Origin: Deltaproteobacteria bacterium
GTDB taxonomy: Bacteria > Desulfobacterota > Syntrophobacteria > Syntrophobacterales > Syntrophobacteraceae
Assembly: GCA_012517315.1 (NCBI GenBank)
Contig: JAAYVE010000022.1
Location: 88,689 to 133,780, forward strand
DNA: 45,092 bases
Direction of reading: 5' to 3'
Position 1 is the first letter of the stretch, and the number at the start of each line of letters is the position of its first letter. The notes beneath the pieces were generated by a model that was not told the DNA's origin, ran no database searches, and saw nothing but the letters and a program-made list of their open reading frames with translations. Made by a program: the position numbers and the translations under genes. Positions 7,884-43,942 of the stretch are shown one piece after another.

Positions 7884-7951
7884 TCATTATTATGAGTAGG
7901 TGAGTGACCATAAAGGAACGCGGGGTTTTTTGCAATGCGGAGGAGAGGGGG

Positions 7952-8266
7952 ATGAGTGATCACCGTCCCGATCACAGGGAATTTATCGAGAGCGGGATCG
8001 AGGAAGACCTCCAGGAGCCGCGGCTTTACAAAGTCCTGCTTCACAACGACGACTACACGACAATGGAATTTGTGGTAGAGATTTTGCAAAGGGTTTTTCA
8101 CAAGTCTCCGGTGGAAGCGACCCAAATCATGTTGAATGTGCACAAGAGCGGAATCGGCGTATGCGGAATATTCCCCGCGGAGGTGGCGGAAACCAAGGTG
8201 GAAATGGTCCACCATCTGGCCAAGAAAAACGGTTTTCCCTTACAGTGCAGCATGGAAGAAGCATAA
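7952..8266 (+). CDS. clpS: ClpS, N-degron adaptor for ClpAP
   Basis: 104 residues from ATG 7952, preceded by a strong GGAGGAGAGGGG site; an upstream in-frame ATG at 7904 lacks one. The ClpS core is clear: LYKVLLHNDDYTTMEFVVEI carries the Asn-Asp-Asp residues that bind a destabilising N-terminal residue, and the VHKSGIGVCGIFPAEVAETK stretch is typical of the family. ClpS hands N-degron substrates to ClpA. The stop TAA is followed directly by the clpA ATG without a gap, so the two genes are translationally coupled. Confidence 0.96.
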   Translation: MSDHRPDHREFIESGIEEDLQEPRLYKVLLHNDDYTTMEFVVEILQRVFHKSPVEATQIMLNVHKSGIGVCGIFPAEVAETKVEMVHHLAKKNGFPLQCSMEEA

Positions 8267-10600
<2,334 letters not shown>

Positions 10601-10617
10601 ATGATGTCTGTCATGAC

Positions 10618-11319
10618 ATGCCCGTCTTTCGTCTGACCCGGTCTCTCATTTTTCCCCCCGTCGACCGCGCGGAAGCCGACGGGCTTCTGGCGGTCGGCGG
10701 GGACCTTTCCCCGGAACGACTGTTACTCGCTTACAGCCTTGGTATATTCCCGTGGTATGCACGAGACCTGCCCATACTCTGGTGGTCCCCTGACCCAAGG
10801 CTCGTGCTTTTCCCCAATGAACTGAAAATCTCCAGGAGTCTCCTTCGCGTTTTGCGCAAGAGGGTTTTTCACGTGACCCTCGACGTGGCGTTTCGAGAGG
10901 TGATGGAGCGATGCGCATCGGTGCCCAGGAAACAGAATGAGGGGACATGGATCGTTCCGGAGATGATCGAGGCCTACTGCAGGCTGCATCGGCTGGGCTA
11001 TGCACATTCGGTGGAAGTTTGGTATGAAGGGGATCTTGTGGGAGGACTGTACGGGATTGCCCTGGGGAGGGTGTTTTTCGGCGAATCCATGTTTTCAATG
11101 CGCAGCGACGCCTCCAAAGTGGCCCTTGTTTACCTGGTGGATCTTTTGAGGCGGTGGGACTTCCGTCTCATCGACTGTCAGGTGACCACAGGGCACCTCA
11201 TGCGAATGGGGGCGAGGGAGATTTCCAGGCGGGAGTTCCTGACCCGGCTCTCCGAAGGCCTGGAAACGCCCTTTCCCAGGAGACTCTGGTCCCCGACCGA
11301 TCTTGTCGATCCCTCCTGA
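10618..11319 (+). CDS. aat: Leucyl/phenylalanyl-tRNA-protein transferase
   Basis: 233 residues. Aat adds Leu or Phe from aminoacyl-tRNA to N-terminal Lys/Arg, creating N-degrons read by ClpS. Conserved segments are LLAYSLGIFPWYARDLPILW with WWSPDPRLVLFP, GTWIVPEMIEAYCRLHRLGY, and GGLYGIALGRVFFGESMFS, plus SKVALVYLV and LIDCQVTTGHLMRMGA. The start at 10618 is 17 bp after the clpA stop and has no good Shine-Dalgarno, so reinitiation after clpA is likely. Length matches the bacterial family. Confidence 0.96.
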   Translation: MPVFRLTRSLIFPPVDRAEADGLLAVGGDLSPERLLLAYSLGIFPWYARDLPILWWSPDPRLVLFPNELKISRSLLRVLRKRVFHVTLDVAFREVMERCASVPRKQNEGTWIVPEMIEAYCRLHRLGYAHSVEVWYEGDLVGGLYGIALGRVFFGESMFSMRSDASKVALVYLVDLLRRWDFRLIDCQVTTGHLMRMGAREISRREFLTRLSEGLETPFPRRLWSPTDLVDPS

Positions 11320-11437: not shown

Positions 11438-12784
11438 ATGGTCGAGAAGGTGATCATCGTGGGTGCGGCAGGCCGGGATTTTCACAATTTCAATGTTTAC
11501 TTCAAGGACAACCGCCGGTACCGGGTCATCGCCTTCACGGCGGCTCAGATTCCCCGGATCGAAGGGCGCCTTTTCCCCCCCGAATTGGCCGGTGAACTCT
11601 ATCCCGTAGGGATTCCCATTGTTCCCGAAGAGGAAATGGATCATTGGATCAGGGAACACCGGGTGGACTTGGTGGCGTTTTCCTACAGCGACATTTCCCA
11701 CGTGGAAGTCATGCACAGGGCGTCCATTGCCATGGCCGGCGGTGCGGATTTCATCCTTCTGGGGGCCACGTATACCATGTTGAGGGCTCGGAAGCCGGTC
11801 ATCGCCGTGTGTGCCGTGAGGACCGGTTGCGGCAAAAGCCAGACCACCCGAAAGATCAGCAGGATCATTGGTGAGACGGGCAGGCGGGTGGTCGTGGTGC
11901 GGCATCCCATGCCCTATGGGGATCTCAAGCAACAGGTGGTGCAGCGTTTTGCGGGTTATGAGGATCTGGATCGCCAGCATTGCACCATCGAAGAGCGGGA
12001 AGAATATGAGCCCCTCATCGACGGGGGGATCGTGGTGTACGCGGGGATCGACTATGGGAAGATTCTTGCGGCGGCCGAACAGGAGGCGGATGTCATCATC
12101 TGGGACGGAGGCAACAACGACACTCCTTTCTACCACCCCGACGTCCACGTTGTGCTCTTCGATCCTCATCGGCCCGGCCATGAGCTTCTCTACTATCCCG
12201 GTGAGACCAACCTGCTCATGGCGGATATCGCCGTCATCAACAAGGTGGACACGGCTTCCGCGGAGAACGTGTCCACCGTGAGGCAAAACATTCGGCGGTT
12301 CGCCCCGCAAGCCCGTATCGTCCTTGCTGCATCGCCTCCCATCGTGGAGCGTCCCGAAGCCATCCGAGGCAAGAGAGTGCTCGTGGTTGAAGACGGCCCC
12401 ACCCTGACCCACGGGGGGATGCCCTACGGGGCGGCCACCCTCGCGGCGAGGCGTCACGGGGCATCGGAAATCGTGGACCCGCGTCCTTGCGCCGTCGGCT
12501 CCATCCGGGAGACGTACTCCCGTTATCCCCACATGGGAGCGAAACTGCCCGCAATGGGTTACGGAGAAGAGCAGATCAGAGACCTGGAACGGACGGTGAA
12601 CGCGGTGGACTGCGACCTCATTCTCTTTGCGACGCCGGTGAGTCTCGACCGCATCATCCGCATGGAAAAGCCCGCCATGAGGGTTCGCTACGAATACCAG
12701 GATCACGGTTCCCCGCTGCTGGAAGAAGTCCTGCTGGAAAAGATGGACAAGAAGTGGGGGCGCCCGTCTCCAAAATACACGTGA
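11438..12784 (+). CDS. COG2403-type GTPase, cyclic 2,3-diphosphoglycerate synthetase family
   Basis: 448 residues from ATG 11438, preceded by CAGGGAGG. The frame upstream to 11303 is open but overlaps aat and lacks a ribosome site. An N-terminal Rossmann-like half (MVEKVIIVGAAGRDFHNFNV) is followed by a P-loop (VRTGCGKSQTT, residues ~128-137), a Walker-B-like VIIWDGGNND (~219-228) and a GTPase-type NKVD at 268-271. This matches the family of archaeal cyclic 2,3-diphosphoglycerate synthetase. The carbamate kinase starts 6 bp downstream, which suggests a carbamoyl-phosphate or amino-acid role rather than osmolyte synthesis. The family call is confident; substrate and reaction here are unknown. 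Confidence 0.82.
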   Translation: MVEKVIIVGAAGRDFHNFNVYFKDNRRYRVIAFTAAQIPRIEGRLFPPELAGELYPVGIPIVPEEEMDHWIREHRVDLVAFSYSDISHVEVMHRASIAMAGGADFILLGATYTMLRARKPVIAVCAVRTGCGKSQTTRKISRIIGETGRRVVVVRHPMPYGDLKQQVVQRFAGYEDLDRQHCTIEEREEYEPLIDGGIVVYAGIDYGKILAAAEQEADVIIWDGGNNDTPFYHPDVHVVLFDPHRPGHELLYYPGETNLLMADIAVINKVDTASAENVSTVRQNIRRFAPQARIVLAASPPIVERPEAIRGKRVLVVEDGPTLTHGGMPYGAATLAARRHGASEIVDPRPCAVGSIRETYSRYPHMGAKLPAMGYGEEQIRDLERTVNAVDCDLILFATPVSLDRIIRMEKPAMRVRYEYQDHGSPLLEEVLLEKMDKKWGRPSPKYT

Positions 12785-12790
12785 GGTGCC

Positions 12791-13738
12791 ATGACCGCAA
12801 CGGAGAGGCCATCACGCGAAGAGGTACTTCTGGTCGCCCTGGGCGGCAACGCCCTCATTCGGAAGGGACAGGCGGGCCTCATTGAGGAGCAGTTTCAGAA
12901 TCTGCGGGCGCCCCTCGGGCAAGTCGCCAGACTGTCCAGGGAATACCGGATTATCGTCACTCACGGCAACGGTCCCCAGGTGGGAAACCTCCTCCTTCAG
13001 CAGGAGTGTTGTGACGCTGTCCCTAGGCTGCCCCTGGAAATCCTGGTAGCTCAGACGCAGGGTCAGATCGGGTACATGATCGAATCGACCCTTGACAATG
13101 AGCTGATGGCCCTCGGACTCGACGGTCAGCAGCTCCTGGTGACCCTTCTGAGCTACGTGGTGGTGGACCATCAGGATCCGGCTTTCCTTAACCCATCCAA
13201 GCCCATCGGGCCGGTTTTCCCCGAGGAGGTGGCCAAGAGGCTCCCATACCCCACCGTTTGGACTCCCAAGGGGTTCAGGAGAGTGGTGGCTTCTCCAAGG
13301 CCCCTCACCATCGTGGAAAAAAAGGAAATCAAGAAGCTCATCGAGGCGGGCTTCCTCGTCATTGCGTGCGGCGGAGGCGGGATTCCAGTCATCAAGGAGA
13401 GCCGGGCCTTCCACGGGGTGGACGCCGTCATCGATAAGGACCTCGCCAGTGCGAAGCTGGCCGAGGAAGTGGGGGTTGATGTCTTTGTCATAGCGACGGA
13501 CGTGGAGGGAGTGGCCATCGGCTACGGCACTGAAAAAGAGCATTATGTGGGCATGTTGCAGATCGACGAGGCGAGAAGATACCTCAAGGCGGGGGAATTT
13601 CCTGCCGGCTCCATGGGACCGAAGGTGGAAGCGGCCGTCCTCTTCGTGGAACGCTGTGGAAAGCGGGCGGTCATCGCCTCCATCGACGCCATCGAGGCGG
13701 CGGTGAAAGGAAAAGCCGGCACACAGTTTGTCCCGTGA
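12791..13738 (+). CDS. arcC: Carbamate kinase
   Basis: 315 residues of the amino-acid-kinase fold: LLVALGGNALIRKGQAG at the N-terminus, then REYRIIVTHGNGPQVGNLLL, FLVIACGGGGIPVI and GVDAVIDKDLASAKLAEEVG, and a C-terminal GSMGPKVEAAVLFVE segment. These are the carbamate-kinase signatures that separate it from glutamate or aspartate kinases. It makes ATP from carbamoyl phosphate and ADP, releasing carbamate. It lies 6 bp after the COG2403 gene and ends exactly adjacent to the stop of the convergent ornithine-cyclodeaminase gene. No arginine deiminase is present; argF, a possible ornithine carbamoyltransferase partner, is 26 kb away. Confidence 0.95.
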   Translation: MTATERPSREEVLLVALGGNALIRKGQAGLIEEQFQNLRAPLGQVARLSREYRIIVTHGNGPQVGNLLLQQECCDAVPRLPLEILVAQTQGQIGYMIESTLDNELMALGLDGQQLLVTLLSYVVVDHQDPAFLNPSKPIGPVFPEEVAKRLPYPTVWTPKGFRRVVASPRPLTIVEKKEIKKLIEAGFLVIACGGGGIPVIKESRAFHGVDAVIDKDLASAKLAEEVGVDVFVIATDVEGVAIGYGTEKEHYVGMLQIDEARRYLKAGEFPAGSMGPKVEAAVLFVERCGKRAVIASIDAIEAAVKGKAGTQFVP

Positions 13739-14878
13739 TCAAGATGTCTGTCTGCCCTTTTTTCTCAGTCCCCGCTCAAGGGTCACCACGAAGTCCTGCA
13801 CATTGGTCAGGATGGACCTTGCGGTGAGGGAGCCCCGGTTGGCGAGCTTCTGACCTGCAAATTCCGACATGTCCACCGTGTAAAAATAGACCGGCCTGAC
13901 GGTGTCATCGGGCATCACCCGGTAAGACGCAAGGAGGTTCCCCATGGCGATGGAATGGAGCTGCGTGGCCATGGCGATGACGGTGGTGGCCCGCGCCGCC
14001 AACCGCCGCATCTGGTCCTGTGCCTCGTAGGCATCGGCCGTTACTTCAGGCAGGGGCCCGTCGTCCCTGATGGAACCGGCCAGGACGTAGGGGATTCCCT
14101 GTTCTACGACGGCTCTCATGATGCCGTCCCCGACGACGCCCTCCCGCACGGCTTTCTCGATGGAGCCGAGGGCGCGAATGCGGTTGATGGTGTCCAAATG
14201 CTTGTAGTGGCCTAAGGGAGCGTATCGCTTGGAATAGATCTCCTGCCCCAGCGCTGTTCCCCAGAGACTGGCCTCCAGATCGTGCACCGCCAAGGCGTTA
14301 CCTGCCGCCAGCCCGTGAACGAAACCCTCCCGAACGATATTGCCGAAGGCCTCTCTCGCATCATGGTCGAAAGCGACGGCGGGGCCCAGCACCCAAAGCA
14401 CGAAACCGTGCTTGCGCTCATGTGTCAGTAGTTCGTACAGTTGATCGTAGTCGATGCTGAAAGAGGTCTCCCGGGAGACGACCGTGCGGAAGGCGAATTT
14501 CTCCGCCGTTTCCTCCCGTGTCATTTGGAATGGAGCCGTATGGACATAGATCCCGTCTTCCCCGTTTTCCCTTCGCCCCACGGCAACCAAGTCGCCTCGT
14601 CGGAGATGGCGAAATTCCCTGACACTCAACCGACCGCCGGGTTCGAGGACCACCGTGCAGTCCATACGGGAATCGCGCACCAGGCGCCAGTCGCCTTTGC
14701 CCACTTGCACGTATTCAGGGAAAATGGACGTTGCATGAAAGTCCTCCGGAGCCACCCCGGCGGATGTCACTGACTCAAAGCGCGCCGGGGGGGCGTCCAC
14801 AAGGGGCGGCACGGAAAAATCCGGGGGCTGGTAGCGTGGAAGTGAAAACGCGGCAGTCCGTTCTCTTGCTGGTTCCAC
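13739..14878 (-). CDS. Ornithine cyclodeaminase of the TIGR00300 / ArgZ C-terminal type
   Basis: 379 residues. It starts at GTG 14878, which has AGGAGG 9 bp upstream. The N-terminal half carries the LOR/SDH conserved region (FHATSIFPEYVQVGKGDWRL and DCTVVLEPGGRLSVREFRHL). The C-terminal half is strongly diagnostic: GFVHGLAAGNALAVHDLEAS, then LAGSIRDDGPLPEVTADAYE with TQLHSIAMGNLLASYRVMP. Relatives are the archaeal ornithine cyclodeaminase/ammonia-lyase family and the C-terminal domain of cyanobacterial arginine dihydrolase ArgZ, which convert ornithine to proline or pyrroline with loss of ammonia. It is unrelated to the mu-crystallin type. Function by family; not provable here. Its stop abuts that of arcC. 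Confidence 0.8.
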   Translation of the reverse strand: MEPARERTAAFSLPRYQPPDFSVPPLVDAPPARFESVTSAGVAPEDFHATSIFPEYVQVGKGDWRLVRDSRMDCTVVLEPGGRLSVREFRHLRRGDLVAVGRRENGEDGIYVHTAPFQMTREETAEKFAFRTVVSRETSFSIDYDQLYELLTHERKHGFVLWVLGPAVAFDHDAREAFGNIVREGFVHGLAAGNALAVHDLEASLWGTALGQEIYSKRYAPLGHYKHLDTINRIRALGSIEKAVREGVVGDGIMRAVVEQGIPYVLAGSIRDDGPLPEVTADAYEAQDQMRRLAARATTVIAMATQLHSIAMGNLLASYRVMPDDTVRPVYFYTVDMSEFAGQKLANRGSLTARSILTNVQDFVVTLERGLRKKGRQTS

Positions 14879-15458
14879 CCTGTCTTTCCTCCTATTTTGT
14901 TTACCGGCTCGTCGGTTTCAAGTGATTCAGGCGAACCACCACGGGCGTGCCCACCATTGCCTGCTTCCATGATTCGAAAAGACGGCGGGACCATCGAAGC
15001 CCTGCCTTCGATGTTTTCCTCCCGCCACCGGCTTCTCCATGAGACTGCACAGAATCATCATAGCTCATGGGGAGGGATTTTCGGAAGCCCCGGAAGGAGA
15101 ATGGCTTCTAAACGGCATCAGCCCGGACAAAGAGGCGTTCCAAGGAATCAGGTGCCTTTTCCAGGAGGCAGGACTCGGTGCCGGACTGAAGCGGAAGGAA
15201 GGGTGTGGATGCTCTCTTTTCAATGTTGTAAAAGTTCTGGCCTCAATGTTTCCAATTTCTTATCATGTCATCGCAAACGTTTGTCCCATATGCTTCTTCC
15301 ACTTGACCGTGAAAGTCATGGATCAACCAAGGTGGAGGCAAATAGGTCGACACACCCATCGGTCCAATTGCCTCAGAGAAGATGGATCGATGAGCGGGTC
15401 CGCTCCCCGGGGGTGGCATTCCCCTGGACAGGGCCGGTGCCGACTGGAGGGCCAGTCC
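14879..15458. other. 580-bp gap upstream of the cNMP-PP2C gene
   Basis: This region separates two divergent genes. The frame of the downstream PP2C gene stays open back to an ATG at 15039, but the residues read (many Arg, Gly, Ser and His) do not resemble a domain, so I treat it as non-coding. No tRNA or riboswitch is recognisable. The stretch 15225-15310 is AT-richer and contains TATCAT near 15262, a possible -10 without a good -35 partner. Confidence 0.4.
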
Positions 15459-16697
15459 ATGAAGGTGGGTCTCATTTCCAGAATGCCCCTTTTCGCCTCA
15501 TTGATGCACCACGAGGTGGAGCTCTTGGCAACGGAACTGCACGAGCGTGTGCTCGATCCCGGTGAAATGCTTTTCCACGAAGGGGAACGTGGGGATACCT
15601 TCTACATCGTGGCGGAAGGGGAGGTGGAGATCATCAAGGCATTGGGAACCCCTGATGAGCGTTTCCTGGGGACGAGGGCTTCGGGCGAGTGCTTCGGGGA
15701 GATATGCCTTCTCCATCCGGACAGGACCAGAACCGCAAGCGTGCGCGCCCGCACGGCGGTCATACTGCTTGAAATGGCCCAGGAACGTTTCCGGAAGCTT
15801 CTCGAATGGCAGCCCGCAGTGGCCTTTGAAATGGCCAGGTCCCTTTCCAATTACTTGCGTGAGTCGGACAACGCCGTCATCAGGGACCTTCACGAAAAAA
15901 ACGAGCAACTGGCCAGGGCTTACGAAGAGCTGAAGGCGGCGCAGGCACAGATCCTCGAAAAGGAGAGGCTAGAACACGAACTCCTCTTGGCCAGGGAAAT
16001 CCAAGAAAGCATGCTGCCCCGGACGCTGCCCACCGTGCCGGGTTATGAATTCGGAGCCCGGATGGTGGCCGCCAAGGCCGTGGGTGGTGACCTGTACGAC
16101 TTTATGCTCCTGGATGATGCGACGGTCGGCATCGCCATAGGAGACGTGTCCGGCAAAGGCGTTCCGGCAGCCCTCTTCATGGCCATGACCCGCAGCCTTT
16201 TGCGTGCGGAGGCTGCTGCGGCCCGTTCTCCCCGCGAGGTCCTCCTCGGTGTTAACAGGCACCTTTTGAGCATGAACGATGCTGGGATGTTCGTCACGAT
16301 CCTCTACGGTGTGTTAGACCCTGCGAGTCGCCGGTTCCATTACGCCCGTGCGGGACATCCTCTGCCCATCCTATGCGATGCACTCGGCACGATTCAAACC
16401 CCTTGCGTCAAAACGGGCCAGCCCGTCGGCCTTCTCTCCGAGCCCGAGTTGGACCAGCAGTTCCTGGAAATCCCTGCCGGGAGCACCTTGATCCTCCATA
16501 CGGACGGCATGACCGATGCTGGCAGCGATGCGGGAGAGCTTTTCGGGGGTTCACGCCTTCACCGGGAAATCGGCCTGCACTTCCGGCTGCCCCCGCAGGC
16601 TCTGTGCGACCAACTGATCAAGGTGGTGCTGGATTACTCCGGTGAGAGCCGCGTGCAGGACGACATGGCCCTGGTGGCGCTGCGCGCCGCGTTGTGA
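15459..16697 (+). CDS. Cyclic-nucleotide-binding PP2C (SpoIIE/RsbU-type) phosphatase
   Basis: 412 residues from ATG 15459, with GGAGG 8 bp upstream. Residues ~8-125 are a cNMP-binding domain whose phosphate-binding cassette reads GECFGEICLLHPDRTRTASV, including the Glu and Arg that contact ribose and phosphate. A coiled linker (LARAYEELKAAQAQILEKER) leads to a PP2C/SpoIIE domain with VGGDLYDFMLLDD, GDVSGKGVPAALFMA, HTDGMTDAGSD and DDMALVAL, which supply the metal-binding aspartates. Such enzymes dephosphorylate STAS antagonists in partner-switching circuits. The gene converges on the STAS gene at 16847-17218, its likely substrate. The bound nucleotide is unknown; the cassette fits cAMP or cGMP. 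Confidence 0.92.
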   Translation: MKVGLISRMPLFASLMHHEVELLATELHERVLDPGEMLFHEGERGDTFYIVAEGEVEIIKALGTPDERFLGTRASGECFGEICLLHPDRTRTASVRARTAVILLEMAQERFRKLLEWQPAVAFEMARSLSNYLRESDNAVIRDLHEKNEQLARAYEELKAAQAQILEKERLEHELLLAREIQESMLPRTLPTVPGYEFGARMVAAKAVGGDLYDFMLLDDATVGIAIGDVSGKGVPAALFMAMTRSLLRAEAAAARSPREVLLGVNRHLLSMNDAGMFVTILYGVLDPASRRFHYARAGHPLPILCDALGTIQTPCVKTGQPVGLLSEPELDQQFLEIPAGSTLILHTDGMTDAGSDAGELFGGSRLHREIGLHFRLPPQALCDQLIKVVLDYSGESRVQDDMALVALRAAL

Positions 16698-16846
16698 CCT
16701 TTCGAGTGACGGAGTCGGAAGGTTTTCACCTTGTCGCCTTTCTTGCCAGAGGTCCGGAGTGTACGCCTTTGAAAGGGGACATGCCGAAAGTGACGTTGAA
16801 AGGCCGAAAGGGTGTGAACGGACACAATCGGGTCCACACAGAGAAA

Positions 16847-17218
16847 TCAGGAAGTGGCCAAATCTCTCAGGGCATTGTCGGCGTCATCACACATCGTGGC
16901 GAATTTCGTGATTCCCAGCATGTTGAAGATCTTTCGGTAGTGTCGGGAAAGGCCGGCGATGGCCACTTTTTGACCTCTCCGCCTGGATTCGGCCATCAGT
17001 TGGATGAGTAGAGCGATACCTCCACTGTTGATGTACGCGCTTTCTTCAAATACCAACAAAAGACAGGGGGCGTCGAGTGCGTTGGCCTCGCTGTAGGCCT
17101 GTTTTAGGCAAGTCTCGGAGCCAACCGTGACGTTGCCCTTGACATGCAAAACGATGACGGTACCCTGTTTTTTCAGCTGGATCACATTCTGAGACTGCAT
17201 GATCGGAGTCTTCACCAC
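16847..17218 (-). CDS. STAS-domain anti-sigma factor antagonist (RsbV/SpoIIAA-like)
   Basis: 123 residues, a single STAS domain: IQLKKQGTVIVLHVKGNVTV, then LLLVFEESAYINSGGIALLI, in which the serine of INSGG is at the position phosphorylated by RsbW-type kinases. It ends with KVAIAGLSRHYRKIFNMLGI. When unphosphorylated it would bind the kinase and release the kinase's other partner. The start is uncertain: GTG 17218, GTG 17215 or ATG 17200, with GGGGAG overlapping the GTG pair. It lies 56 bp after the RsbW-like gene in the same direction. No sigma factor gene is adjacent. Confidence 0.88.
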   Translation of the reverse strand: MVKTPIMQSQNVIQLKKQGTVIVLHVKGNVTVGSETCLKQAYSEANALDAPCLLLVFEESAYINSGGIALLIQLMAESRRRGQKVAIAGLSRHYRKIFNMLGITKFATMCDDADNALRDLATS

Positions 17219-17274
17219 TCCCCGCCGCCTGCGGTGCGATGTTTTATCCAGAGGATCCCCTGACTCTCGGGAGG

Positions 17275-17748
17275 TCAGGAGCGCGCTCCGGCCATTGTGA
17301 TGACCATTTTCACTGCGTGCCCTTGGTCTGTCAACCTGTTGAACTCCACATGGTCCACCAGACGCCTGATTAGAAAGATGCCAAGGCCCCTCGTTGGCTG
17401 TAACTGGGCGATCTTTTCCCTGACCTGCCGTTCATCGGGAAGCTGTGCCATTCCGCGCCCTTCATCGACAACGAAGACCGTTAGGCTCTCCTCGTCGTAA
17501 TTGATGGTGACCACGACCCGCCTGTTGCTGTCCCACCGATTGCCATGTTCCATGGCATTGAGGCTGGCCTCGGAAACCGCCGTTCTCAAATCCTCGATGC
17601 GTTCCGGGTCAAACCCCAGGATCCTGGCGAAACAGGCGGAGAAATCCATGGCAATGCGCTCGTAACCCATCTTGCTCGGCAGGTTGACCTCGATGGTGCG
17701 ATCATCCAGCATTCGCGCGGTGCTGCCTGAACTGATCTTTACGGTCAA
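17275..17748 (-). CDS. RsbW-like anti-sigma serine kinase (HATPase_c_2)
   Basis: 157 residues from TTG 17748, which has a perfect GAGGAG 6 bp upstream and begins exactly where homology should start (TTG ACC GTA AAG). The frame is open to an ATG at 17850, but that start and ATG 17796 lack ribosome sites and would add a cysteine- and arginine-rich leader. GHKL motifs are present: N-box EASLNAMEHGN (Glu60, Asn64), DEGRGM, and TRGLGIFLIRRLVDHVEF. It would phosphorylate the STAS protein encoded next and sequester a target such as a sigma factor or effector. It sits between the membrane PP2C phosphatase and the STAS gene, a complete kinase/phosphatase/antagonist set. Confidence 0.88.
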   Translation of the reverse strand: MTVKISSGSTARMLDDRTIEVNLPSKMGYERIAMDFSACFARILGFDPERIEDLRTAVSEASLNAMEHGNRWDSNRRVVVTINYDEESLTVFVVDEGRGMAQLPDERQVREKIAQLQPTRGLGIFLIRRLVDHVEFNRLTDQGHAVKMVITMAGARS

Positions 17749-17901
17749 TTCCTTCTCCTCAATGCAGGTGCAGGGTGAGGCATCGGGTTCGTCCATTCTA
17801 TTCGGTCGTGCTCGCAACATCCTTGCTTGAGTGTACCCCTTCTGCACCATGGGCTCGGGTCAAACCATGGAGAATGCTCCTCGGGCAGTTGACATGGCGT
17901 T

Positions 17902-20493
17902 TCACCGCTCCGCGACGCCCAGGACGATCATGGTCAGATCATCGTGTTCCCGTGATCCACCGCAGAAGGTCGACACGGCTTGCAGCGTGTGGACAAGAAG
18001 GTTTCGACAGTCCAGGGAACCCGCAGCACGGACCGTTTGCAGCAGACGATCGAACCCGAACAACTCTCCCTTTTCATTGAAGGATTCCACGACCCCGTCC
18101 GTGTAAAACACCATTCGGTCGCCCGGATGGAGATCGATTCGGACTTCCTCATAATTTGCATCCTCCACGATTCCCAGAGGGACAGTGTCTCCAGGGTTCT
18201 CCACAAGCCTGGCCTCCCCTGATTCACCCGAATAGCAGACGGGTTGGGGCTGCCCTGCGTTGGTCAGGGAGATGCTGCAGGACTTCTCGTCAACGACGGC
18301 GTATACGAGAGCGACGGACAAACCTTTCTTGATGTCCGATCGGACGCGGCGGTTGGCTTGCCGCATGAGTTGTTCCCTGGAAAGCCCCTGCTCGGAGAGC
18401 ATGCGGAAGATGCTGCGGCATGCGGCCGTGACGAGTGCCCCGGAGACACTTTTTCCCATCACGTCCCCCAGAACGATACCCCACTTCCCATCCTCGATTT
18501 CGATGAAGTCGTAGAAGTCTCCTCCTACTTCCCGCGCCGGGATGGACACGGCGGCAATGTCGAAGCCTTGGAGACGGGGAGTCACAGCAGGCAGCATGCT
18601 CACCTGGAGATCGCGGGCGATGGCCAATTCTTCCTCCATTCGCTCCTTTTCGATCACCTGATCCAATCTCCTGGCGTTTTCAATGGCGACGGCCCCTTGA
18701 TTGGCGATGGTTCTGAGGAGATTGACGTCCTCCCTGCGGTAGGGTTTTCCAGACTTCTTCCTTCCCAGGGCGATGATTCCCGTCAGTCTTTTCTCATAAA
18801 TAAAAGGGACGAGGATCGCTGCGCCCAGACGCGTGAAAACCGCTTTGCAGACCTCCCTTTCTTCCGCGAAAAGGGGGTTTTCCTCCAGGTCGTGGAGGAT
18901 GATCTCCTTGCGGGTTTGGGCGAGTATCCTCACCAGGGGATCCTCCACCGAGAGCTTCGGGAATTTACCGGCCTTCCGGTCCGCATTGCCGTTGCAGTGA
19001 ACGGCAGGGAGAACTCTCTCCATGCCCCCGGCCTGAACTGTTTCGGAGGTCTCCCCGTCTACGCAGGGGCGCCCTAAACCTTCCACCGCAACGCACTCGT
19101 ATGCATGGCCCCCTTCATCGAGCAGCATCACGCATCCACATTCGATGAACATGGTCCCCAGGGCGAAGTCCATCACCGTCCTCACCACTTCGTCCAGCCT
19201 GAGAAGGGAGCGCAGGGATTCGCCAACTTTTTGGACGGTTTCCTGGTAGTCATAGTCCAGCCTGTAGAAGACACGGTCGATGAACCTCTGGAAGCGGCTG
19301 CGAATAGGGTTGAAAAGGCAGAGGACCGCCAGGAAGAATGCAAGGGGGATGAGAGGGGAATCCGCGAACTGGAAATGGCCCAATGCAAGATTCGCCAATA
19401 CGACAAAGAGGCCGTAGGCCGCCGAAACCGCCCCCGTTGCGAGGATGTAGCCGTAAGTCCGCTTGATGAAGGTATCGATTTCGAACAGATCGTGTCTCAC
19501 GATTCCGTACCCGAGGAAAATGGGGAAAACGATGAAGAATGCGAGATAGGAGTTGAACCCTGGAAGAATGACCACATTGAAGAGGGCAGTGCTGAGGAGG
19601 TCAAGGACGGGGACCGACGCAGAAATGGCAAATCCCGTCAGAAGCAGCTTCGCACGAACCTTGGCGATTTCGGAAGTGGATCGCAGCCACGTCTGCAGGC
19701 AGGAACCCAACAAAACGACGACACCGCAGGCCAGGAACAGTGCGCTCCCAATGCGGCAGCTTCCCGGGGATTCGCTGAGAGTGTGGGCCGCGCCGCAGGT
19801 ATAGAAAAACAGGATCAGGGAAACAGCATACGGAAGTCCCACGAAGTGGGTTCTCTTCAAAAGCCATGATCGCTCGTGGGGAAACGACAGTGCCAGGTGG
19901 ATCAGAACTGCCGGAGTGATGGTATATGCAAAGATGTGGAAGCTCTCCAGCCAGGGGGGCGTCAGTTCACTCACCCTGTAAAGGAACATGATAAAAATGC
20001 AAAGCGTGGTGCAGAAGACAAACAGAACCCAACTGGGTCTTGTGTGAGGTTTCATGAGAAAAACGATGGATCCCGTCAGGGCGTAGGCGAGGCCGAGGAG
20101 AAAAAGGAACCCGCTCCTCCTGAAGGATTCCGCAAGTCCCACGGGTGCGTTGCGGATGCGGATCGTCATTTCTTTCCCGCCTCTGTCGAGGCGGTATCGA
20201 TTCTCCCCTCCGATTTCTTTGACGAGGGAGGAACGCAGTTCTTCCATACTCTTGAAGGTCCTGTCGTTCACGGAGAGGATGCGATCGCCGACTCTCATGC
20301 CGGCCTGCTGAGCTCGTTCGGACACGATCCCCACCACGTGGATGCCCGATGCGGTGCGGAAACCGTAGCCGAAATCGGGGCACTCGGCCCAATGAAAGAT
20401 ATTGAGAAGATATAGGCCGGCGATGCTCAGCGCAAAAACCTGAACCAAGGCAAAAGCGATCCAGGAAAGGGCTTTTGTGAACTGCCGGTGCAT
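17902..20493 (-). CDS. Membrane PDZ-GAF-PP2C phosphatase (RsbU/SpoIIE type)
   Basis: 863 residues from ATG 20493, which has GGGGAGGGGG about 8 bp upstream; ATG 20514 and 20535 are in frame but poorer. Order: transmembrane helix (~8-30); a PDZ-like domain (~45-110; GIHVVGIVSERAQQAGMRVG, DRILSVNDRTFKSMEEL); seven or eight hydrophobic helices (~120-385); a GAF domain (~415-630; ILVPFIYEKRLTGIIALGRK near its end); a short coil; and a PP2C domain with VGGDFYDFIEIED, GDVMGKSVSGALV, YTDGVVESFNEKGELFGFD and HDDLTMIVL. It should sense an envelope or small-molecule signal and dephosphorylate the STAS antagonist encoded two genes downstream. It starts 38 bp after lnt. Confidence 0.9.
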   Translation of the reverse strand: MHRQFTKALSWIAFALVQVFALSIAGLYLLNIFHWAECPDFGYGFRTASGIHVVGIVSERAQQAGMRVGDRILSVNDRTFKSMEELRSSLVKEIGGENRYRLDRGGKEMTIRIRNAPVGLAESFRRSGFLFLLGLAYALTGSIVFLMKPHTRPSWVLFVFCTTLCIFIMFLYRVSELTPPWLESFHIFAYTITPAVLIHLALSFPHERSWLLKRTHFVGLPYAVSLILFFYTCGAAHTLSESPGSCRIGSALFLACGVVVLLGSCLQTWLRSTSEIAKVRAKLLLTGFAISASVPVLDLLSTALFNVVILPGFNSYLAFFIVFPIFLGYGIVRHDLFEIDTFIKRTYGYILATGAVSAAYGLFVVLANLALGHFQFADSPLIPLAFFLAVLCLFNPIRSRFQRFIDRVFYRLDYDYQETVQKVGESLRSLLRLDEVVRTVMDFALGTMFIECGCVMLLDEGGHAYECVAVEGLGRPCVDGETSETVQAGGMERVLPAVHCNGNADRKAGKFPKLSVEDPLVRILAQTRKEIILHDLEENPLFAEEREVCKAVFTRLGAAILVPFIYEKRLTGIIALGRKKSGKPYRREDVNLLRTIANQGAVAIENARRLDQVIEKERMEEELAIARDLQVSMLPAVTPRLQGFDIAAVSIPAREVGGDFYDFIEIEDGKWGIVLGDVMGKSVSGALVTAACRSIFRMLSEQGLSREQLMRQANRRVRSDIKKGLSVALVYAVVDEKSCSISLTNAGQPQPVCYSGESGEARLVENPGDTVPLGIVEDANYEEVRIDLHPGDRMVFYTDGVVESFNEKGELFGFDRLLQTVRAAGSLDCRNLLVHTLQAVSTFCGGSREHDDLTMIVLGVAER

Positions 20494-20531
20494 CGTGACA
20501 TCCCCCCTCCCCATGGCGATCAAGAGCGGTT

Positions 20532-22211
20532 TCAATGGGCATGAAAAGCGTGCCGGCCGGATGCTGAGTTGCAGGAAGGGTGAACATTGCTTGGAGGTTC
20601 AAACGGAGCGGAAGCCCCATCGGGGAAACTCTTTCCCTTTCTTCCGGCTGAGAAGAGAATCAGGTATGCTGAAACCAGAACGCTCATCACGGCAAACCAG
20701 TCACCCATCCGAGAATAAAGGCTTTCTGCCGGTTCCGTTGCGATCACGTCTGTGAGGACTCCCCGCACAAAGACGTCTCGACCGCTTGCATCCGCCAGCC
20801 GGCGCTGGATTCTGCCCTCCGGATCAATGATGCAGGAGACTCCGGTATTGGCGCACCGGATCACATGCACGCGATTCTCCACGGCGCGGAAAACGCTCAT
20901 GGCCAGGAACTGATACGGCGCAGCCGTCTCCCCAAACCAAGCCTCATTGGTGATGTTCACGATACATCGGGCTCCCTTTCCCACAAGATGCCGCGCCATT
21001 TCCGGAAAGATGTTTTCCCAGCAGATGGTGGTCCCGAAGCGGAAACCGCCTGCATCGAAGACAAGGGGTTCCCTGCCCGGCGCGTAGCCCTGCACGTCGG
21101 GCACATGGATCCATGCCCAGGGGATGATGCCCTTCAACGGGAGGTACTCCCCGAAAGGGAGGAGTCGCATTTTGTCGTACCGCTGCAAGTGCGGCGTCTT
21201 GAACTCCGGGTCAATGAGAAAGGCGGAGTTGGTGTGATGGAGCCCTTTCACTTCCCTGCCTTGGAATTTTTGCTCCTGGGAACTTCCCAGCAGGATCCAG
21301 GCACCCGTCTCTTTCGCCAGGTACTGGACTTGGCGGAAAAGGTCGGGGTCTTGAGTGACGGACCTGGGTGTAGCCGTTTCCGGCCAGACAATGATATGGG
21401 GCTTCTCCAAACCGGCACTCCTCGTCAGTTCCGAATACACTTCCATGATGGATGCGGCATGAGCAGGGTCCCACTTGGATTCCTGGGGAATGTTTGCTTG
21501 TATCAGTGACACCTTGATGTTCCTTGATCCTTCGATTCCCGACGGCTCCATGTGTGCAGGAAGGAGAAGGAGGAGCATTGCAAGCACTGCAACCCCCGTC
21601 AATTGAAAGACGGAGCGCATTGATCCTCCGTCAATCTCTCGAGAATGCCGCCAAAGGCCGCTGTTCAGAATACCGGCAAGGACCGCCGCCACCGCCGCAT
21701 TGACCAGGCAGATGAGAAAAGTGATGCCCCATGCCCCGGTCATGGACGCCCATTGGATCACAGCAGGGTGCCTGTACTGAGTGTGAGCCAGCAGCGCCCA
21801 AGGGAGTGAGAGAAAGGAGAGGTTCGAGCGGAGGTATTCCACGGAGACCCAGAAAAACGGGACCGATGCAAGCGCAGGAACCATGCCCCAGTTGCGGTTT
21901 GCGATGGTGAAAGCGAGACCCAAGAACCCGAAGGGCAGGCTGAAACACAGGATCAGAAGTGCATGATGGAGCCAGGAGTATGCGGGAACATGCGTGATCC
22001 AGTGAAAGACACCTGAGATGAACCCCATTCCCCAGACCGTGGCGATGACAAAACCCATCCCTGGCGGCTTCCGTCGGATGACCAGCAGCAAGGGCACGAG
22101 AGCCCCCCAGGCAAGGAGGCTCCAGTCATGATCCGGAAAAGACAGGACCGTGGCGGCGGATGAGAGGAGCACCAGAAGCATGTCTTTCGCACAGCGTAGA
22201 ATGCCCATCAT
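20532..22211 (-). CDS. lnt: Apolipoprotein N-acyltransferase
   Basis: 559 residues from ATG 22211 (ATG 22208 is equally possible; neither has a good ribosome site, and the open frame continues to 22433 with non-protein-like sequence). About seven membrane helices precede a carbon-nitrogen hydrolase domain with the Glu-Lys-Cys triad: IIVWPETATP, RYDKMRLLPFGEYLPLKG and FGTTICWENIFPEMARHLVG. A final helix follows. The C-terminus carries about 35 polar residues beyond the last helix, longer than usual. Lnt N-acylates lipoproteins in the inner membrane; two lipoproteins are encoded in this window. The downstream membrane PP2C gene starts 38 bp on, so Lnt may be co-transcribed with the partner-switching genes. 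Confidence 0.93.
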   Translation of the reverse strand: MMGILRCAKDMLLVLLSSAATVLSFPDHDWSLLAWGALVPLLLVIRRKPPGMGFVIATVWGMGFISGVFHWITHVPAYSWLHHALLILCFSLPFGFLGLAFTIANRNWGMVPALASVPFFWVSVEYLRSNLSFLSLPWALLAHTQYRHPAVIQWASMTGAWGITFLICLVNAAVAAVLAGILNSGLWRHSREIDGGSMRSVFQLTGVAVLAMLLLLLPAHMEPSGIEGSRNIKVSLIQANIPQESKWDPAHAASIMEVYSELTRSAGLEKPHIIVWPETATPRSVTQDPDLFRQVQYLAKETGAWILLGSSQEQKFQGREVKGLHHTNSAFLIDPEFKTPHLQRYDKMRLLPFGEYLPLKGIIPWAWIHVPDVQGYAPGREPLVFDAGGFRFGTTICWENIFPEMARHLVGKGARCIVNITNEAWFGETAAPYQFLAMSVFRAVENRVHVIRCANTGVSCIIDPEGRIQRRLADASGRDVFVRGVLTDVIATEPAESLYSRMGDWFAVMSVLVSAYLILFSAGRKGKSFPDGASAPFEPPSNVHPSCNSASGRHAFHAH

Positions 22212-38093: not shown

Positions 38094-38169
38094 TCAAAAA
38101 GACCTTTTTTCCTCTCCTTGACGACCTTCACCATGGGAAAGGTCAAAGGGAACTCCCGTTCCTCTCCCC

Positions 38170-39378
38170 TCATGCCCCACGGCGCCCTTTCACGAGGGAT
38201 TCGATACGAAGCCTCAGTCCTTGGAGGCGGATGAAGCCGGTGGCGTCGTTCTGCTCGTAAACCTCGTCCTCCTCGAAGGTGGCAAAGCTCGGCTGGTAGA
38301 GGGATGCATCGGATTTTCTGCCGACGGTCCGGCAGCTTCCCTTGTAGAGCTTCAGTCGAGCCGTCCCGTGGACGTTTTCCTGGGTTAGATCCATCAATCC
38401 CTGAAGCAGGCGCATTTCCGGCGAGTACCAGAAGCCGTTGTAGATGAGCCTGGAATATTGGGGTACGAGGGAGTCGCGGATGTGCATGACCTCGCGGTCC
38501 ATGGTGATGGACTCCACGGCCTTATGCGCCTCCCGCAGGAGGGTCCCGCCGGGCGTTTCGTAAACCCCCCTGGATTTCATGCCCACGAAACGGCTCTCCA
38601 CCATGTCCAGACGGCCGATTCCGTGTCTTCCCCCCAGGTCGTTCAACCGGGCCAGAAGGTTGGCGGGACTGAGCCTTTGGCCGTTCACCGCCACAGGGTT
38701 TCCCCGCTGGAAATCGATTTCCACCACCTCGGGGGTGTCGGGGGCGTTCCGCGGGTCCACCGTGAGAGTGAACATGTCCTCGTCGGGTTCCCGCCAAGGA
38801 TCTTCGAGGATGCCTCCCTCGTAGCTGATGTGCAGCAGGTTGCGGTCGGAGCTGTATGGCTTTTCGGGTGTGACGGGGATGGGGATCCCACGGGACCTGG
38901 CAAATTCCACCAGCGCCGTGCGCGACCGGAGGTCCCATTCACGCCACGGGGCAATGACCTTGAGCTTCGGGTTGAGGGCCGTGTAGGTCAGTTCGAACCG
39001 GACCTGATCGTTCCCTTTCCCCGTCGCTCCGTGGCTCACGGCATCTGCACCTTCCTCCTCGGCGATCTTTACCTGGTGCTTGGCGATGAGCGGTCGGGCA
39101 ATGGACGTGCCCAGCAGATACTGGCCTTCGTAGATGGCATTGGCACGAAATGCAGGAAAGACGAAATCCCTCACGAACTCCTCCCGCAAATCCTCGACCC
39201 GCGCCTTGACGGCACCGGTGGCAAGGGCCTTTGCCTCGATTCCACTCAGTTCGTCCCCTTGGCCGAGATCTGCCGCAAAGGCGATCACCTCGCACCCATA
39301 GGTTTCCACAAGCCACTTGAGAATGATGGAGGTGTCCAGACCTCCCGAATATGCCAAGACAACTTTCTCTATCTTCAT
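38170..39378 (-). CDS. argG: Argininosuccinate synthase
   Basis: 402 residues from ATG 39378 (GAGGAA upstream); an ATG at 39405 adds nine residues without a ribosome site. An N-type ATP pyrophosphatase: [59 protein letters not shown], and [20 protein letters not shown]. It joins citrulline and aspartate using ATP. It follows argF by 87 bp in the order F, G, H. Confidence 0.97.
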
Positions 39379-39465: not shown

Positions 39466-40386
39466 TCAGCCCTTCTGGGTGATGACCCACTCGAGCAGCG
39501 CCATTTGAAAATGGAGGCGGTTTTCAGCCTGGTCGAAAACGGCGGAACGAGGTCCTTCAAGGACATCCGCGGTGATTTCCTCCCCCCTGTGAGCCGGCAG
39601 GCAGTGAAGGACCATGGCGCTGGCAGGGGCGGCATTCATCAGGGAGGCGTTGATCTGGTATTCGCGAAAAACCTTCCGCCGGTTTTCCGCTTCATCCTCC
39701 TGTCCCATGCTGGCCCAGACGTCGGTGTACAAAACGTCGGCTTCGAGAACGGCCTTGTGGGGATCGCGGGTGAGCTGAATCGTTCCCGTGCCGTGTTCCT
39801 TCGCCCACTCCAGGACTTCACTCGACGGTTCGTAGCCCGGAGGGCATGCAAGGGACAGGGTGAAGCCCAAGCGTGCCGCAGCATTGATCCAGGAATGGGC
39901 GACGTTGTTTCCATCACCGACCCACGCCACGTGAAGGCCGTCGAGACTGCCCCGCTTTTCCTGGATGGTGAGCAGGTCGCTCAATACCTGGCATGGATGG
40001 AACTGGTCCGTGAGAGCATTGATCACGGGGATGGAGGAGAACCGGGCGAGTTCCTCCACGTCCGACTGGGCGAAGGTGCGCACGGCGATGGCGTCCGTAT
40101 AACGGGACAGGACCCGTGCCGTGTCGGCAAGGGGTTCGCTGCGGGAAATTTGGGAGTCCTTCTCCGTGAGAAAAACGCAGTCACCCCCCAGGCGATACAT
40201 GGCGGCCTCGAAAGACACCCGGGTTCGGGTGGACGGTTTGGAAAAAATAAGTCCAAGGACTCGCCTGGAAAGGATCGGCTGGAGGGAGCCTTCCGCCCAC
40301 TCCCGCTTCATGACCTGGGCCCGGGCTATGAGACGCCTGATCTCGTCGGCCGTCAGATCTCTTATGGTCAGCAGATCGCGCTTCAT
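39466..40386 (-). CDS. argF: Ornithine carbamoyltransferase
   Basis: 306 residues from ATG 40386 with GAGGAA upstream, its start overlapping the argD stop (ATGA). The carbamoyl-phosphate loop is FSKPSTRTRVSFEAAMYRLG. FHPCQVLSDLLTIQEKRG and WVGDGNNVAHSWINAA are typical, and the ornithine-binding VLHCLPAHRGEEI is present. It forms citrulline from ornithine and carbamoyl phosphate. Its position in the biosynthetic run favours the anabolic role, though the same enzyme could in principle run in reverse with the carbamate kinase encoded at 12.8 kb. Confidence 0.97.
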   Translation of the reverse strand: MKRDLLTIRDLTADEIRRLIARAQVMKREWAEGSLQPILSRRVLGLIFSKPSTRTRVSFEAAMYRLGGDCVFLTEKDSQISRSEPLADTARVLSRYTDAIAVRTFAQSDVEELARFSSIPVINALTDQFHPCQVLSDLLTIQEKRGSLDGLHVAWVGDGNNVAHSWINAAARLGFTLSLACPPGYEPSSEVLEWAKEHGTGTIQLTRDPHKAVLEADVLYTDVWASMGQEDEAENRRKVFREYQINASLMNAAPASAMVLHCLPAHRGEEITADVLEGPRSAVFDQAENRLHFQMALLEWVITQKG

Positions 40387-41629: not shown

Positions 41630-43938
<2,309 letters not shown>

Positions 43939-43942
43939 GGAA

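What the first reader, a model, noticed from the sequence alone, without database searches (positions are those of the whole stretch)
11438..14878. COG2403 GTPase, carbamate kinase and TIGR00300 ornithine cyclodeaminase as a possible new ornithine/carbamoyl-phosphate module
Seen: a P-loop protein of the cyclic-2,3-diphosphoglycerate-synthetase family lies 6 bp before a carbamate kinase, and an ArgZ/TIGR00300-type ornithine cyclodeaminase gene ends on the adjoining base. Known: carbamate kinase makes ATP from carbamoyl phosphate, and the TIGR00300 family deaminates ornithine. Inference: ornithine and carbamoyl phosphate are the products of citrulline phosphorolysis, so two genes consume both products. 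The COG2403 protein may be an unrecognised enzyme or regulator in that pathway rather than an osmolyte synthase.
Basis: partly seen in the sequence, partly recalled or inferred. Interest (0 to 1): 0.65.

Follow-up and report, generated by a model that had tools for sequence, protein, structure and literature searches.

The report
Unknown GTPase-like enzyme beside carbamate kinase
A highly conserved protein of unknown function, whose nearest named relative makes an osmolyte, sits next to the genes for carbamate kinase or ornithine carbamoyltransferase in bacteria from several distant groups, so it probably takes part in handling arginine, citrulline and carbamoyl phosphate.

Summary
The three genes are real and placed as described. 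The P-loop protein (448 aa) and carbamate kinase form a tight same-strand pair (6 bp gap). The cyclodeaminase gene is convergent and matches NCBIfam's 'ODC_var' model, not TIGR00300 itself.

The link to carbamate kinase is not local. In the loci read, the kinase is next door in delta-proteobacteria, in all 30 Aminicenantia loci, and in some KSB1, Zixibacteria and Neomarinimicrobiota records. Ornithine carbamoyltransferase (OTC) is next door in Aminicenantia, Bacillota, Caldisericaceae and a few deltas. Gene order differs between groups. The cyclodeaminase link was seen only in delta-type records and one titled Proteobacteria.

The fold is that of cyclic-2,3-diphosphoglycerate synthetase, but that enzyme's catalytic Lys-Arg pair is Thr-Gly in 52 of 52 relatives and a guanine-type NKxD motif is present, so it is probably not an osmolyte synthase. 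Of 42 chosen genomes with it, none has an arginine deiminase over cut-off (three have long divergent matches), 39 have OTC, 35 carbamate kinase and only 18 argininosuccinate synthase. This fits a deiminase-less arc-like module. The reaction itself is unknown.

The parts
11438..12784 (+).
12791..13738 (+). arcC, carbamate kinase, 315 aa, 6 bp after P0001 on the same strand
13739..14878 (-). ODC_var (NF052526), putative nickel-pincer-nucleotide-dependent ornithine cyclodeaminase, 379 aa, tail to tail with arcC; its link to the pair is clade-limited
39466..40386 (-). argF, the genome's only ornithine carbamoyltransferase over the family cut-off; inside the arginine-synthesis cluster, about 26 kb from arcC

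Best explanation
P0001 belongs to an unnamed, slowly evolving family of two-domain P-loop enzymes (Rossmann domain plus cDPGS/LpxK-type P-loop domain, probably GTP-using) that act at the arginine/citrulline/ornithine/carbamoyl-phosphate node together with carbamate kinase and ornithine carbamoyltransferase. In many anaerobes these genes form an 'arc-like' catabolic module without arginine deiminase: citrulline is split by ornithine carbamoyltransferase run in reverse, carbamoyl phosphate is cashed for ATP by carbamate kinase, and in the window's clade ornithine can be drained by the neighbouring cyclodeaminase. P0001 would do an NTP-dependent step that feeds or drives this route. Shown: the genes, the recurrent co-localisation, the predicted fold, the loss of cDPGS catalytic residues, the pattern of present and absent pathway genes. 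Inferred: catabolic direction, GTP use, enzymatic rather than regulatory role, anaerobic lifestyle of the carriers (recalled from the group names). Unknown: the reaction.
For: Kinase within 1.4 kb: 27 of 39 relatives' loci, 12 of 21 delta-type and 10 of 59 other wide-set loci, 30 of 30 Aminicenantia, 4 of 30 Bacillota; same strand in every one of these. OTC within 1.4 kb: 1 of 39, 3 of 21, 4 of 59, 25 of 30 and 8 of 30. Control markers ClpA, AroC, HslU, ArgG and ArgH within 5 kb in 0 of the 59, a GalE-type one in 4 (the controls were searched with one window query each, kinase and OTC with several queries partly taken from these loci, so the comparison is not fully even).

Pfam tally of adjacent same-strand genes (gap under 250 bp; 110 loci gave 53 upstream and 57 downstream): OTC 9 of 53 and arginyl-tRNA synthetase 9 of 53 share the top upstream, amino-acid kinase 16 of 57 the top downstream.

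Different gene orders in different phyla; at least 17 changes of kinase adjacency on a 154-row tree with many weak forks.

42 genomes with the protein: deiminase over cut-off 0, OTC over cut-off 39, kinase over 300 bits 35 (22 over cut-off), CPS large chain over cut-off 22, argG 18; of 24 without argG, 21 have OTC and 16 OTC plus kinase, 9 of these with no deiminase-superfamily hit.

Bacillota: kinase in 25 of 40 genomes with the protein, 11 of 40 without, p 0.003 with no correction for relatedness.

Fold and motifs.
Against: No reaction was shown. In the loci read, most Chloroflexota and archaeal copies have neither kinase nor OTC beside the gene, 22 of 30 Bacillota loci have no OTC within their 1.5 kb flanks, and the same-class family f5 has the gene beside a transporter and a sigma factor instead. 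A P-loop NTPase is not an obvious substitute for arginine deiminase. In the window's own genome the arginine-synthesis cluster is complete and two full-length CPS large chains exist, so a purely catabolic reading is not forced there. Deiminase-superfamily matches at E 0.001 occur in 14 of the 42 genomes: long divergent ones in G077 (263 bits, full length, cut-off 489), G076 and G079, and short proteins of about 270-330 aa in others; any of these could do the first step. Many genomes are incomplete drafts, so absences are uncertain, and gene sharing within a phylum is not independent.
Confidence: 0.5

Rival explanations
1. Anabolic reading: P0001 activates bicarbonate with GTP (carboxyphosphate) and ammonia to give carbamate, which carbamate kinase phosphorylates; the pair would be a split carbamoyl-phosphate synthetase supplying ornithine carbamoyltransferase or pyrimidine synthesis.
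For: CPS large chain missing over cut-off in 20 of 42 genomes with the protein; 17 of these have OTC, 13 the kinase, and 6 have OTC but neither CPS nor kinase. In Bacillota CPS is present in 25 of 40 genomes with the protein but 36 of 40 without, p 0.008. Foldseek lists P-loop enzymes that activate carboxylates, carbamates or UTP (dethiobiotin synthetase, CTP synthase, cobyrinate diamide synthase) among weak matches.
Against: 24 of 42 genomes have no argG match at E 1e-30, so citrulline made by OTC would go nowhere. The window's genome has two CPS large chains. Kinase presence does not depend clearly on CPS absence among Bacillota with the protein (12 of 15 against 13 of 25, p 0.10). Two adjacent Bacillota OTCs score highest with the roughly 330-aa NF003286 subfamily (533 and 507 bits, cut-off 515), which I recall as catabolic ArcB-type.
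Confidence: 0.15
2. Regulatory or channelling GTPase: P0001 binds GTP and, through its Rossmann domain, a dinucleotide or amino acid, and controls or scaffolds carbamate kinase and ornithine carbamoyltransferase.
For: Closest folds include GTPase helpers HypB, UreG and MeaB (Z 17.4, 14.9, about 13-14); NKx[DE] in nearly all relatives; N-terminal domain matches the NAD-binding domain of the redox sensor Rex, Z 12.9 over 96 residues. Channelling of labile carbamoyl phosphate between kinase and OTC is reported for Pyrococcus furiosus (passages of PMC6022934).
Against: 83 of 448 positions are invariant in 52 relatives whose record titles span more than ten phyla, many of them charged and spread over both domains, which looks more like a substrate pocket than a switch. 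cDPGS and LpxK, which are enzymes, are the best matches.
Confidence: 0.2
3. It is a true cyclic-2,3-diphosphoglycerate synthetase making an osmolyte.
For: Best sequence match in the PDB (E 6.4e-5; 6.9e-6 with a profile) and best fold match over the whole length (Foldseek E 5.0e-17; Z 23.1, 353 residues, rmsd 11.3).
Against: 15-16% identity. cDPGS K145 and R146 correspond to T129 and G130, invariant in 52 of 52 (the P-loop alignment is itself below significance, so the register rests on the GK[ST] anchor; residues from PMC10690619). The two cDPGS sequences shown lack the NKxD motif at the aligned place. No family that I recognise as 2,3-diphosphoglycerate metabolism is among the 25 families shown in each Pfam tally. 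The abstract of PMC10690619 says the compound is found only in hyperthermophilic methanogens.
Confidence: 0.03
4. Nickel metallochaperone GTPase for the neighbouring nickel-pincer cyclodeaminase.
For: HypB and UreG among closest folds; NCBIfam calls the neighbour NPN-dependent; nickel-insertion protein family PF01969 in 28 of 28 genomes searched.
Against: The cyclodeaminase was not found within 5 kb in any of the 59 non-delta wide-set loci, nor in the 1.5 kb flanks of 60 Bacillota and Aminicenantia loci, although many of these have kinase or OTC links. PF01969 is equally present in the tested genomes without P0001 (G002, G004, G005, G027, G029, G031, G033).
Confidence: 0.05

Closest known systems
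Cyclic 2,3-diphosphoglycerate synthetase of Methanothermus fervidus (8ORK, 8ORU)
   Same: Two-domain architecture and fold over the full length of the predicted model; P-loop and Walker B in place
   Different: 15-16% identity; catalytic K145/R146 replaced by invariant Thr-Gly; NKx[DE] instead of its ATP-site sequence; recurrent neighbours are arginine and carbamoyl-phosphate genes
Tetraacyldisaccharide 4'-kinase LpxK
   Same: P-loop domain fold, Z 19.1 over 281 residues, rmsd 3.3
   Different: The aligned part starts at model residue 87, so the N-terminal Rossmann domain is not matched; no lipid A family among those shown in the neighbour tallies
HypB / UreG / MeaB GTPases
   Same: P-loop core fold, Z about 13-17; NKx[DE] motif
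   Different: Match covers about 165-185 residues only; no hydrogenase, urease or mutase family among those shown in the neighbour tallies
arc (arginine deiminase) operon arcA-arcB-arcC (recalled)
   Same: Ornithine carbamoyltransferase and carbamate kinase side by side on one strand in some groups
   Different: No arginine deiminase over cut-off in any of 42 genomes; a P0001 family member takes a place in the cluster
Carbamate-kinase-like carbamoyl-phosphate synthesis of Pyrococcus (PMC6022934, passages)
   Same: Carbamate kinase whose closest solved structure is 1e19 (that 1e19 is from Pyrococcus is recalled)
   Different: The window's genome has two CPS large chains
ArgZ / TIGR00300 ornithine cyclodeaminase
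   Same: Neighbouring protein shares the ArgZ C-terminal domains
   Different: Below the TIGR00300 and ArgZ cut-offs, over that of the sister model NF052526

Membership tests
Cyclic 2,3-diphosphoglycerate synthetase | Full-length two-domain fold | tested here: met
   Predicted model: Z 23.1, 353 residues aligned, model 1-442; N-terminal domain alone Z 10.2
Cyclic 2,3-diphosphoglycerate synthetase | Lys-Arg pair (K145, R146) in the P-loop that binds 2,3-DPG | tested here: not met
   T129 and G130 in 52 of 52 rows; register from the GK[ST] anchor and the weak P-loop alignment; residues from PMC10690619
Cyclic 2,3-diphosphoglycerate synthetase | E45 from the partner subunit contacting 2,3-DPG | not tested
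   No residue-level structural alignment available
Cyclic 2,3-diphosphoglycerate synthetase | Makes cDPG from 2,3-DPG and ATP | not testable with these tools
   needs an assay
P-loop GTPase (NKxD class) | Walker A, Walker B and NKxD motifs | tested here: met
   G132-K133-S134 in 52 of 52, D223 in 52 of 52, N268 in 50, K269 in 52, D or E271 in 48 of 52
P-loop GTPase (NKxD class) | GTP binding and hydrolysis | not testable with these tools
   needs an assay
arc (arginine deiminase) operon | Carbamate kinase and ornithine carbamoyltransferase clustered on one strand | tested here: met
   Aminicenantia 25 of 30 with both, Bacillota 4 of 30 with both; in the window only the kinase is adjacent, argF is about 26 kb away
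arc (arginine deiminase) operon | Arginine deiminase arcA | tested here: not met
   0 of 42 genomes over cut-off; 14 of 42 with some match at E 0.001, one of them full length at 263 bits; none in the window's genome
Carbamate kinase | Family model over cut-off and full-length match | tested here: met
   NF009007 306.9 over 266, residues 10-314; TIGR00746 355.6, just under 358.25
TIGR00300 ornithine cyclodeaminase | Score over the TIGR00300 cut-off | tested here: not met
   236.4 against 410.8
NF052526 ODC_var | Score over the model cut-off | tested here: met
   567.8 against 440
NF052526 ODC_var | Nickel-pincer cofactor available | tested here: inconclusive
   PF01969 (Ni_insertion; LarC by recall) present in the window's genome and in 28 of 28; LarB and LarE not tested; not discriminating

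The most novel reading that the evidence does not exclude
The family is an unrecognised GTP-dependent enzyme that replaces arginine deiminase, or couples NTP to citrulline/carbamoyl-phosphate turnover, in a widespread deiminase-less arc pathway of anaerobic bacteria and archaea, so that a class of proteins named after cyclic-2,3-diphosphoglycerate synthetase hides a new step of arginine energy metabolism.
Probability: 0.25. Interest if true: 0.85.

Novelty: new variant of a known kind. Interest (0 to 1): 0.62.

Why it matters
The protein is about as conserved as a core enzyme: 54-84% identity to the window's copy among the 52 aligned relatives, 59-64% for the archaeal rows (the wide-set rows are the best 80, so the closer relatives). 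It matches 100 of 299 sampled Bacillota genomes, 12 of these only weakly (E 1e-17 or worse), and 76 of 80 Aminicenantia, some partial. The window's copy hits no Pfam or NCBIfam model, and its best-matching named relative is an osmolyte enzyme whose catalytic residues it lacks. If it works at the carbamoyl-phosphate node, it fills a gap in the energy metabolism of many uncultured anaerobes. It would also call for a second look at claims of heat adaptation that rest on a cDPG synthetase gene, such as that for Nitrosocaldaceae in PMC7819960 (passages seen; I did not examine that gene). The prediction is cheap to test with purified proteins.

Tried and rejected
Considered and set aside: osmolyte synthase (motif test); nickel chaperone for the cyclodeaminase; split carbamoyl-phosphate synthetase kept as a rival. 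Arginyl-tRNA synthetase next door (12 of 59 non-delta loci within 1.4 kb) is confined to one Chloroflexota clade on the tree and is counted as one event; two archaeal loci have it 3-4 kb away on the other strand (L100, L146). The conserved clpA and aroC upstream are shared synteny of the window's family, not part of the module. The promoter/terminator scan gave nothing above shuffles. Literature: nothing found for COG2403, nickel-pincer nucleotide with ornithine cyclodeaminase, diphosphoglycerate synthetase with carbamate kinase, predicted GTPase with the two enzymes, or cyclic 2 3-diphosphoglycerate with arginine. Searches gave listings, from which four papers were opened: PMC10690619 (abstract, results section, passages), PMC6022934, PMC9007349 and PMC7819960 (passages). 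Subscription papers are mostly not in that library.

Counting limits: sets overlap (L036/L070, L041/L071, L054/L079 by equal contig lengths; L102/L176, L126/L182, L105/L194, L137/L204, L139/L190 by genome handle or contig), so counts from different sets must not be added. The relatives' 39 loci include the window's own and two from one genome (G023). The 80 wide-set loci are the best of at least 586, so biased to closer relatives. In Bacillota and Aminicenantia only the best 30 loci each were read, with 1.5 kb flanks. Several contigs end near the gene, so counts are lower bounds. The 42 genomes of the pathway tests were picked by me. For the tree, 154 of 179 rows were used: four loci named in the script, two thirds of L190-L214 and near-identical rows (over 97%) were dropped. 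In the 40 against 40 Bacillota test I took handles in order; the negatives after G122 are inferred from not being listed as matches. No correction for relatedness. P-value sets were entered by hand from the listings.


Full report
WHAT IS THERE. The window holds, on the + strand, a 448-aa protein gene (11438-12784) and, six bases later, a carbamate kinase gene (12791-13738); a 379-aa gene on the - strand (13739-14878) ends on the adjoining base, the two stops sharing TGATCA. Upstream lie, by their sequences (naming recalled), clpS, clpA and aat. The kinase is over the NF009007 cut-off and just under the TIGR00746 one. The third protein belongs to NF052526 'ODC_var, putative NPN-dependent ornithine cyclodeaminase' and not to TIGR00300, and it has the ArgZ C-terminal Rossmann domain. 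The first protein matches no Pfam or NCBIfam model at E 0.001.

THE WINDOW'S GENOME. The genome is a 4.43 Mb draft in 61 contigs, 99.4% complete. It looks delta-proteobacterial: three relatives of its family have contigs of the same length as named delta records (inference). It has one copy of the protein, no arginine deiminase match, one ornithine carbamoyltransferase over cut-off, one full-length carbamate kinase and two full-length carbamoyl-phosphate synthase large chains. The same window carries, on the - strand, what reads as argH, argG, argF, argD, argB, hslU and hslV between 36693 and 44542 (OTC and argG confirmed, the others named by eye).

RECURRENCE. A relative of the protein is found in 39 of 59 genomes of the relatives search, own genome included, in at least 586 stretches of the species-level genome collection, of which the best 80 were read, in 100 of 299 Bacillota, 12 of these only weak matches, and in 76 of 80 Aminicenantia, some partial. 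Named records include Chloroflexota, Bathyarchaeota, Thermoplasmata, KSB1, Aminicenantes, WOR-3, Caldisericaceae and Hermodarchaeota.

Kinase within 1.4 kb: 27 of 39 relatives' loci, 12 of 21 delta-type loci, 10 of 59 other wide-set loci, 4 of 30 Bacillota, 30 of 30 Aminicenantia. Within that distance it is on the same strand every time, downstream in all sets except Bacillota, where it is upstream in all four. Ornithine carbamoyltransferase within 1.4 kb: 1 of 39, 3 of 21, 4 of 59, 8 of 30 and 25 of 30. As controls ClpA, AroC, HslU, ArgG and ArgH occurred within 5 kb in 0 of the 59 non-delta loci and a GalE-type protein in 4. These controls were searched with one window query each, the kinase and OTC with several, some taken from the loci themselves. 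ClpA and AroC do recur within the relatives (18 and 16 of 39 within 5 kb), which shows shared synteny there.

GENE ORDER. Orders read: protein-kinase (deltas, KSB1, Zixibacteria, one of two Neomarinimicrobiota); protein-kinase-OTC (Aminicenantia); OTC-protein and kinase-OTC-protein (Bacillota); protein-OTC (Caldisericaceae); class-III aminotransferase-OTC-protein-kinase (delta L080). An untargeted Pfam tally of adjacent same-strand genes (53 upstream, 57 downstream, from 110 loci) put OTC (9 of 53) and arginyl-tRNA synthetase (9 of 53) first upstream and the amino-acid kinase fold (16 of 57) first downstream (Aminicenantia loci from the class search and the relatives not included). On a FastTree of 154 rows the label 'kinase adjacent' needs at least 17 changes and 'OTC adjacent' 8; the tree has many weak forks. 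In Bacillota, 6 of the 25 tested genomes with both protein and kinase have them within 1.2 kb. A flat-chance estimate with a 3 kb margin gives p about 1e-10, without correction for relatedness.

Against a simple picture: most Chloroflexota and archaeal loci read have neither kinase nor OTC next door, 22 of 30 Bacillota loci have no OTC in their flanks, and the same-class family f5 shows a transporter and a sigma factor instead (named by eye).

THE CYCLODEAMINASE. It is within 5 kb in 13 of 39 relatives' loci, all on the opposite strand, and in 9 of 80 wide-set loci, 8 on the opposite strand; all 9 lie among the 21 delta-type loci. None was seen in the 60 Bacillota and Aminicenantia loci, where only 1.5 kb flanks were read. 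L142 (Geoalkalibacter by title) has the same tail-to-tail set although its copy of the protein, a long branch with unusual make-up, lies far away on the tree. L091 has a relative of the cyclodeaminase, 36% identical, directly upstream on the same strand; its family model was not checked because one search failed. It is an occasional neighbour, not a core partner.

STRUCTURE. The predicted model is confident (mean pLDDT 92.1, pTM 0.91). Best match is cyclic 2,3-diphosphoglycerate synthetase (Foldseek E 5.0e-17; Z 23.1 over 353 residues, rmsd 11.3, which suggests different domain closure), then LpxK (Z 19.1), HypB (Z 17.4) and UreG (Z 14.9). Folded alone, residues 1-116 match the NAD-binding domain of Rex repressors and a UDP-quinovosamine dehydrogenase (Z 12.9) and the cDPGS N-terminal domain (Z 10.2). 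The cDPGS authors reported no known relatives for that domain (PMC10690619, results section read).

MOTIFS. PMC10690619 assigns substrate phosphate binding and catalysis to K145 and R146 in the P-loop. At these places the 52 aligned relatives have Thr and Gly without exception (register by the GK[ST] anchor, the P-loop alignment being too weak by itself). At the aligned place of the guanine motif, N268-K269-x-[DE]271 is nearly universal (50, 52 and 48 of 52), while the two cDPGS sequences shown have none. Invariant charged residues span both domains (R13, D14, H16, R128, R155, H156, E185, E186, E188, E189, D205, D223, D228, R245, E318, D319, H325), which favours an enzyme.

PATHWAY CONTEXT. 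In 42 genomes that hold the protein (4 near relatives and 38 behind wide-set loci, chosen by me to span phyla and to include linked and unlinked cases): arginine deiminase over cut-off 0, any deiminase-superfamily match at E 0.001 in 14, three of them long (G077 full length at 263 bits, G076, G079); OTC over cut-off 39; CPS large chain over cut-off 22; carbamate kinase over 300 bits 35, 22 of them over cut-off; argG over cut-off 18. Of 24 genomes without argG, 21 have OTC, 16 OTC plus kinase, and 9 of these no deiminase-superfamily match. OTC without argG fits a catabolic use; draft incompleteness will explain some absences. Against it, 20 of 42 lack the CPS large chain, and in Bacillota CPS is rarer with the protein (25 of 40) than without (36 of 40), which keeps a carbamoyl-phosphate-supplying role open. 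Kinase is commoner with the protein (25 of 40 against 11 of 40, p 0.003). Two of the OTCs beside Bacillota copies score highest with NF003286 (533 and 507 bits, cut-off 515), a subfamily I recall as catabolic. PMC9007349 (passages read) notes that OTC in reverse is thermodynamically very unfavourable, so a step that pulls or pushes it would make sense.

MECHANISM. Most likely the protein is an NTP-using enzyme of this node in a deiminase-less arc-like route. That it acts on arginine, citrulline or carbamoyl phosphate is inference from neighbours; the direction is inference from missing genes; the nucleotide is inference from NKxD. Rivals and refuting tests are listed in their sections.

NOVELTY. 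The three genes are individually of known kinds or annotated as such. The recurrent link and the mismatch with the catalytic residues of the named relative were not found in print by the searches made (in a library that lacks most subscription papers). I rate it a new variant of a known kind: an arc-like carbamoyl-phosphate module with an uncharacterised P-loop enzyme.

Noticed in passing
window 36693-44542, - strand: Apparent arginine-synthesis cluster argB-argD-argF-argG-argH next to hslU and hslV, about 22 kb from the finding; OTC and argG lie on the same contig as the P-loop gene in the relatives G003 and G014 too.
   Followed up: partly
window 7904-11319: clpS, clpA and aat (N-degron genes, naming recalled) lie just upstream of the finding, and clpA is within 5 kb of the P-loop gene in 18 of 39 relatives' loci.
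   Followed up: partly
window 15039-20535: A run of genes that read by eye like a phosphatase/anti-sigma partner-switching module (PP2C-type phosphatases, anti-sigma antagonist, histidine-kinase-like ATPase); not analysed.
   Followed up: no
L062-L068 (same-class family f5): Here the P-loop gene stands, in most of the loci, beside a branched-chain-type ABC transporter and an RpoH-like sigma factor instead of carbamate kinase (named by eye).
   Followed up: partly
L117 5686-10397: Two copies of the P-loop protein in one locus, about 1.9 kb apart, with OTC just upstream of the first.
   Followed up: no
L153 1282-2262 and L154 1240-2112, - strand: Proteins of 326 and 290 aa distantly related to arginine deiminase and dimethylargininase, with a shared C-terminal GGPTCLTRPL, in genomes without arcA over cut-off; candidates for the missing deiminase step.
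   Followed up: partly
cDPGS N-terminal domain (8ORU 3-122): Reported without known structural relatives, but it aligns with this family's Rossmann domain, which in turn matches Rex NAD-binding domains.
   Followed up: partly
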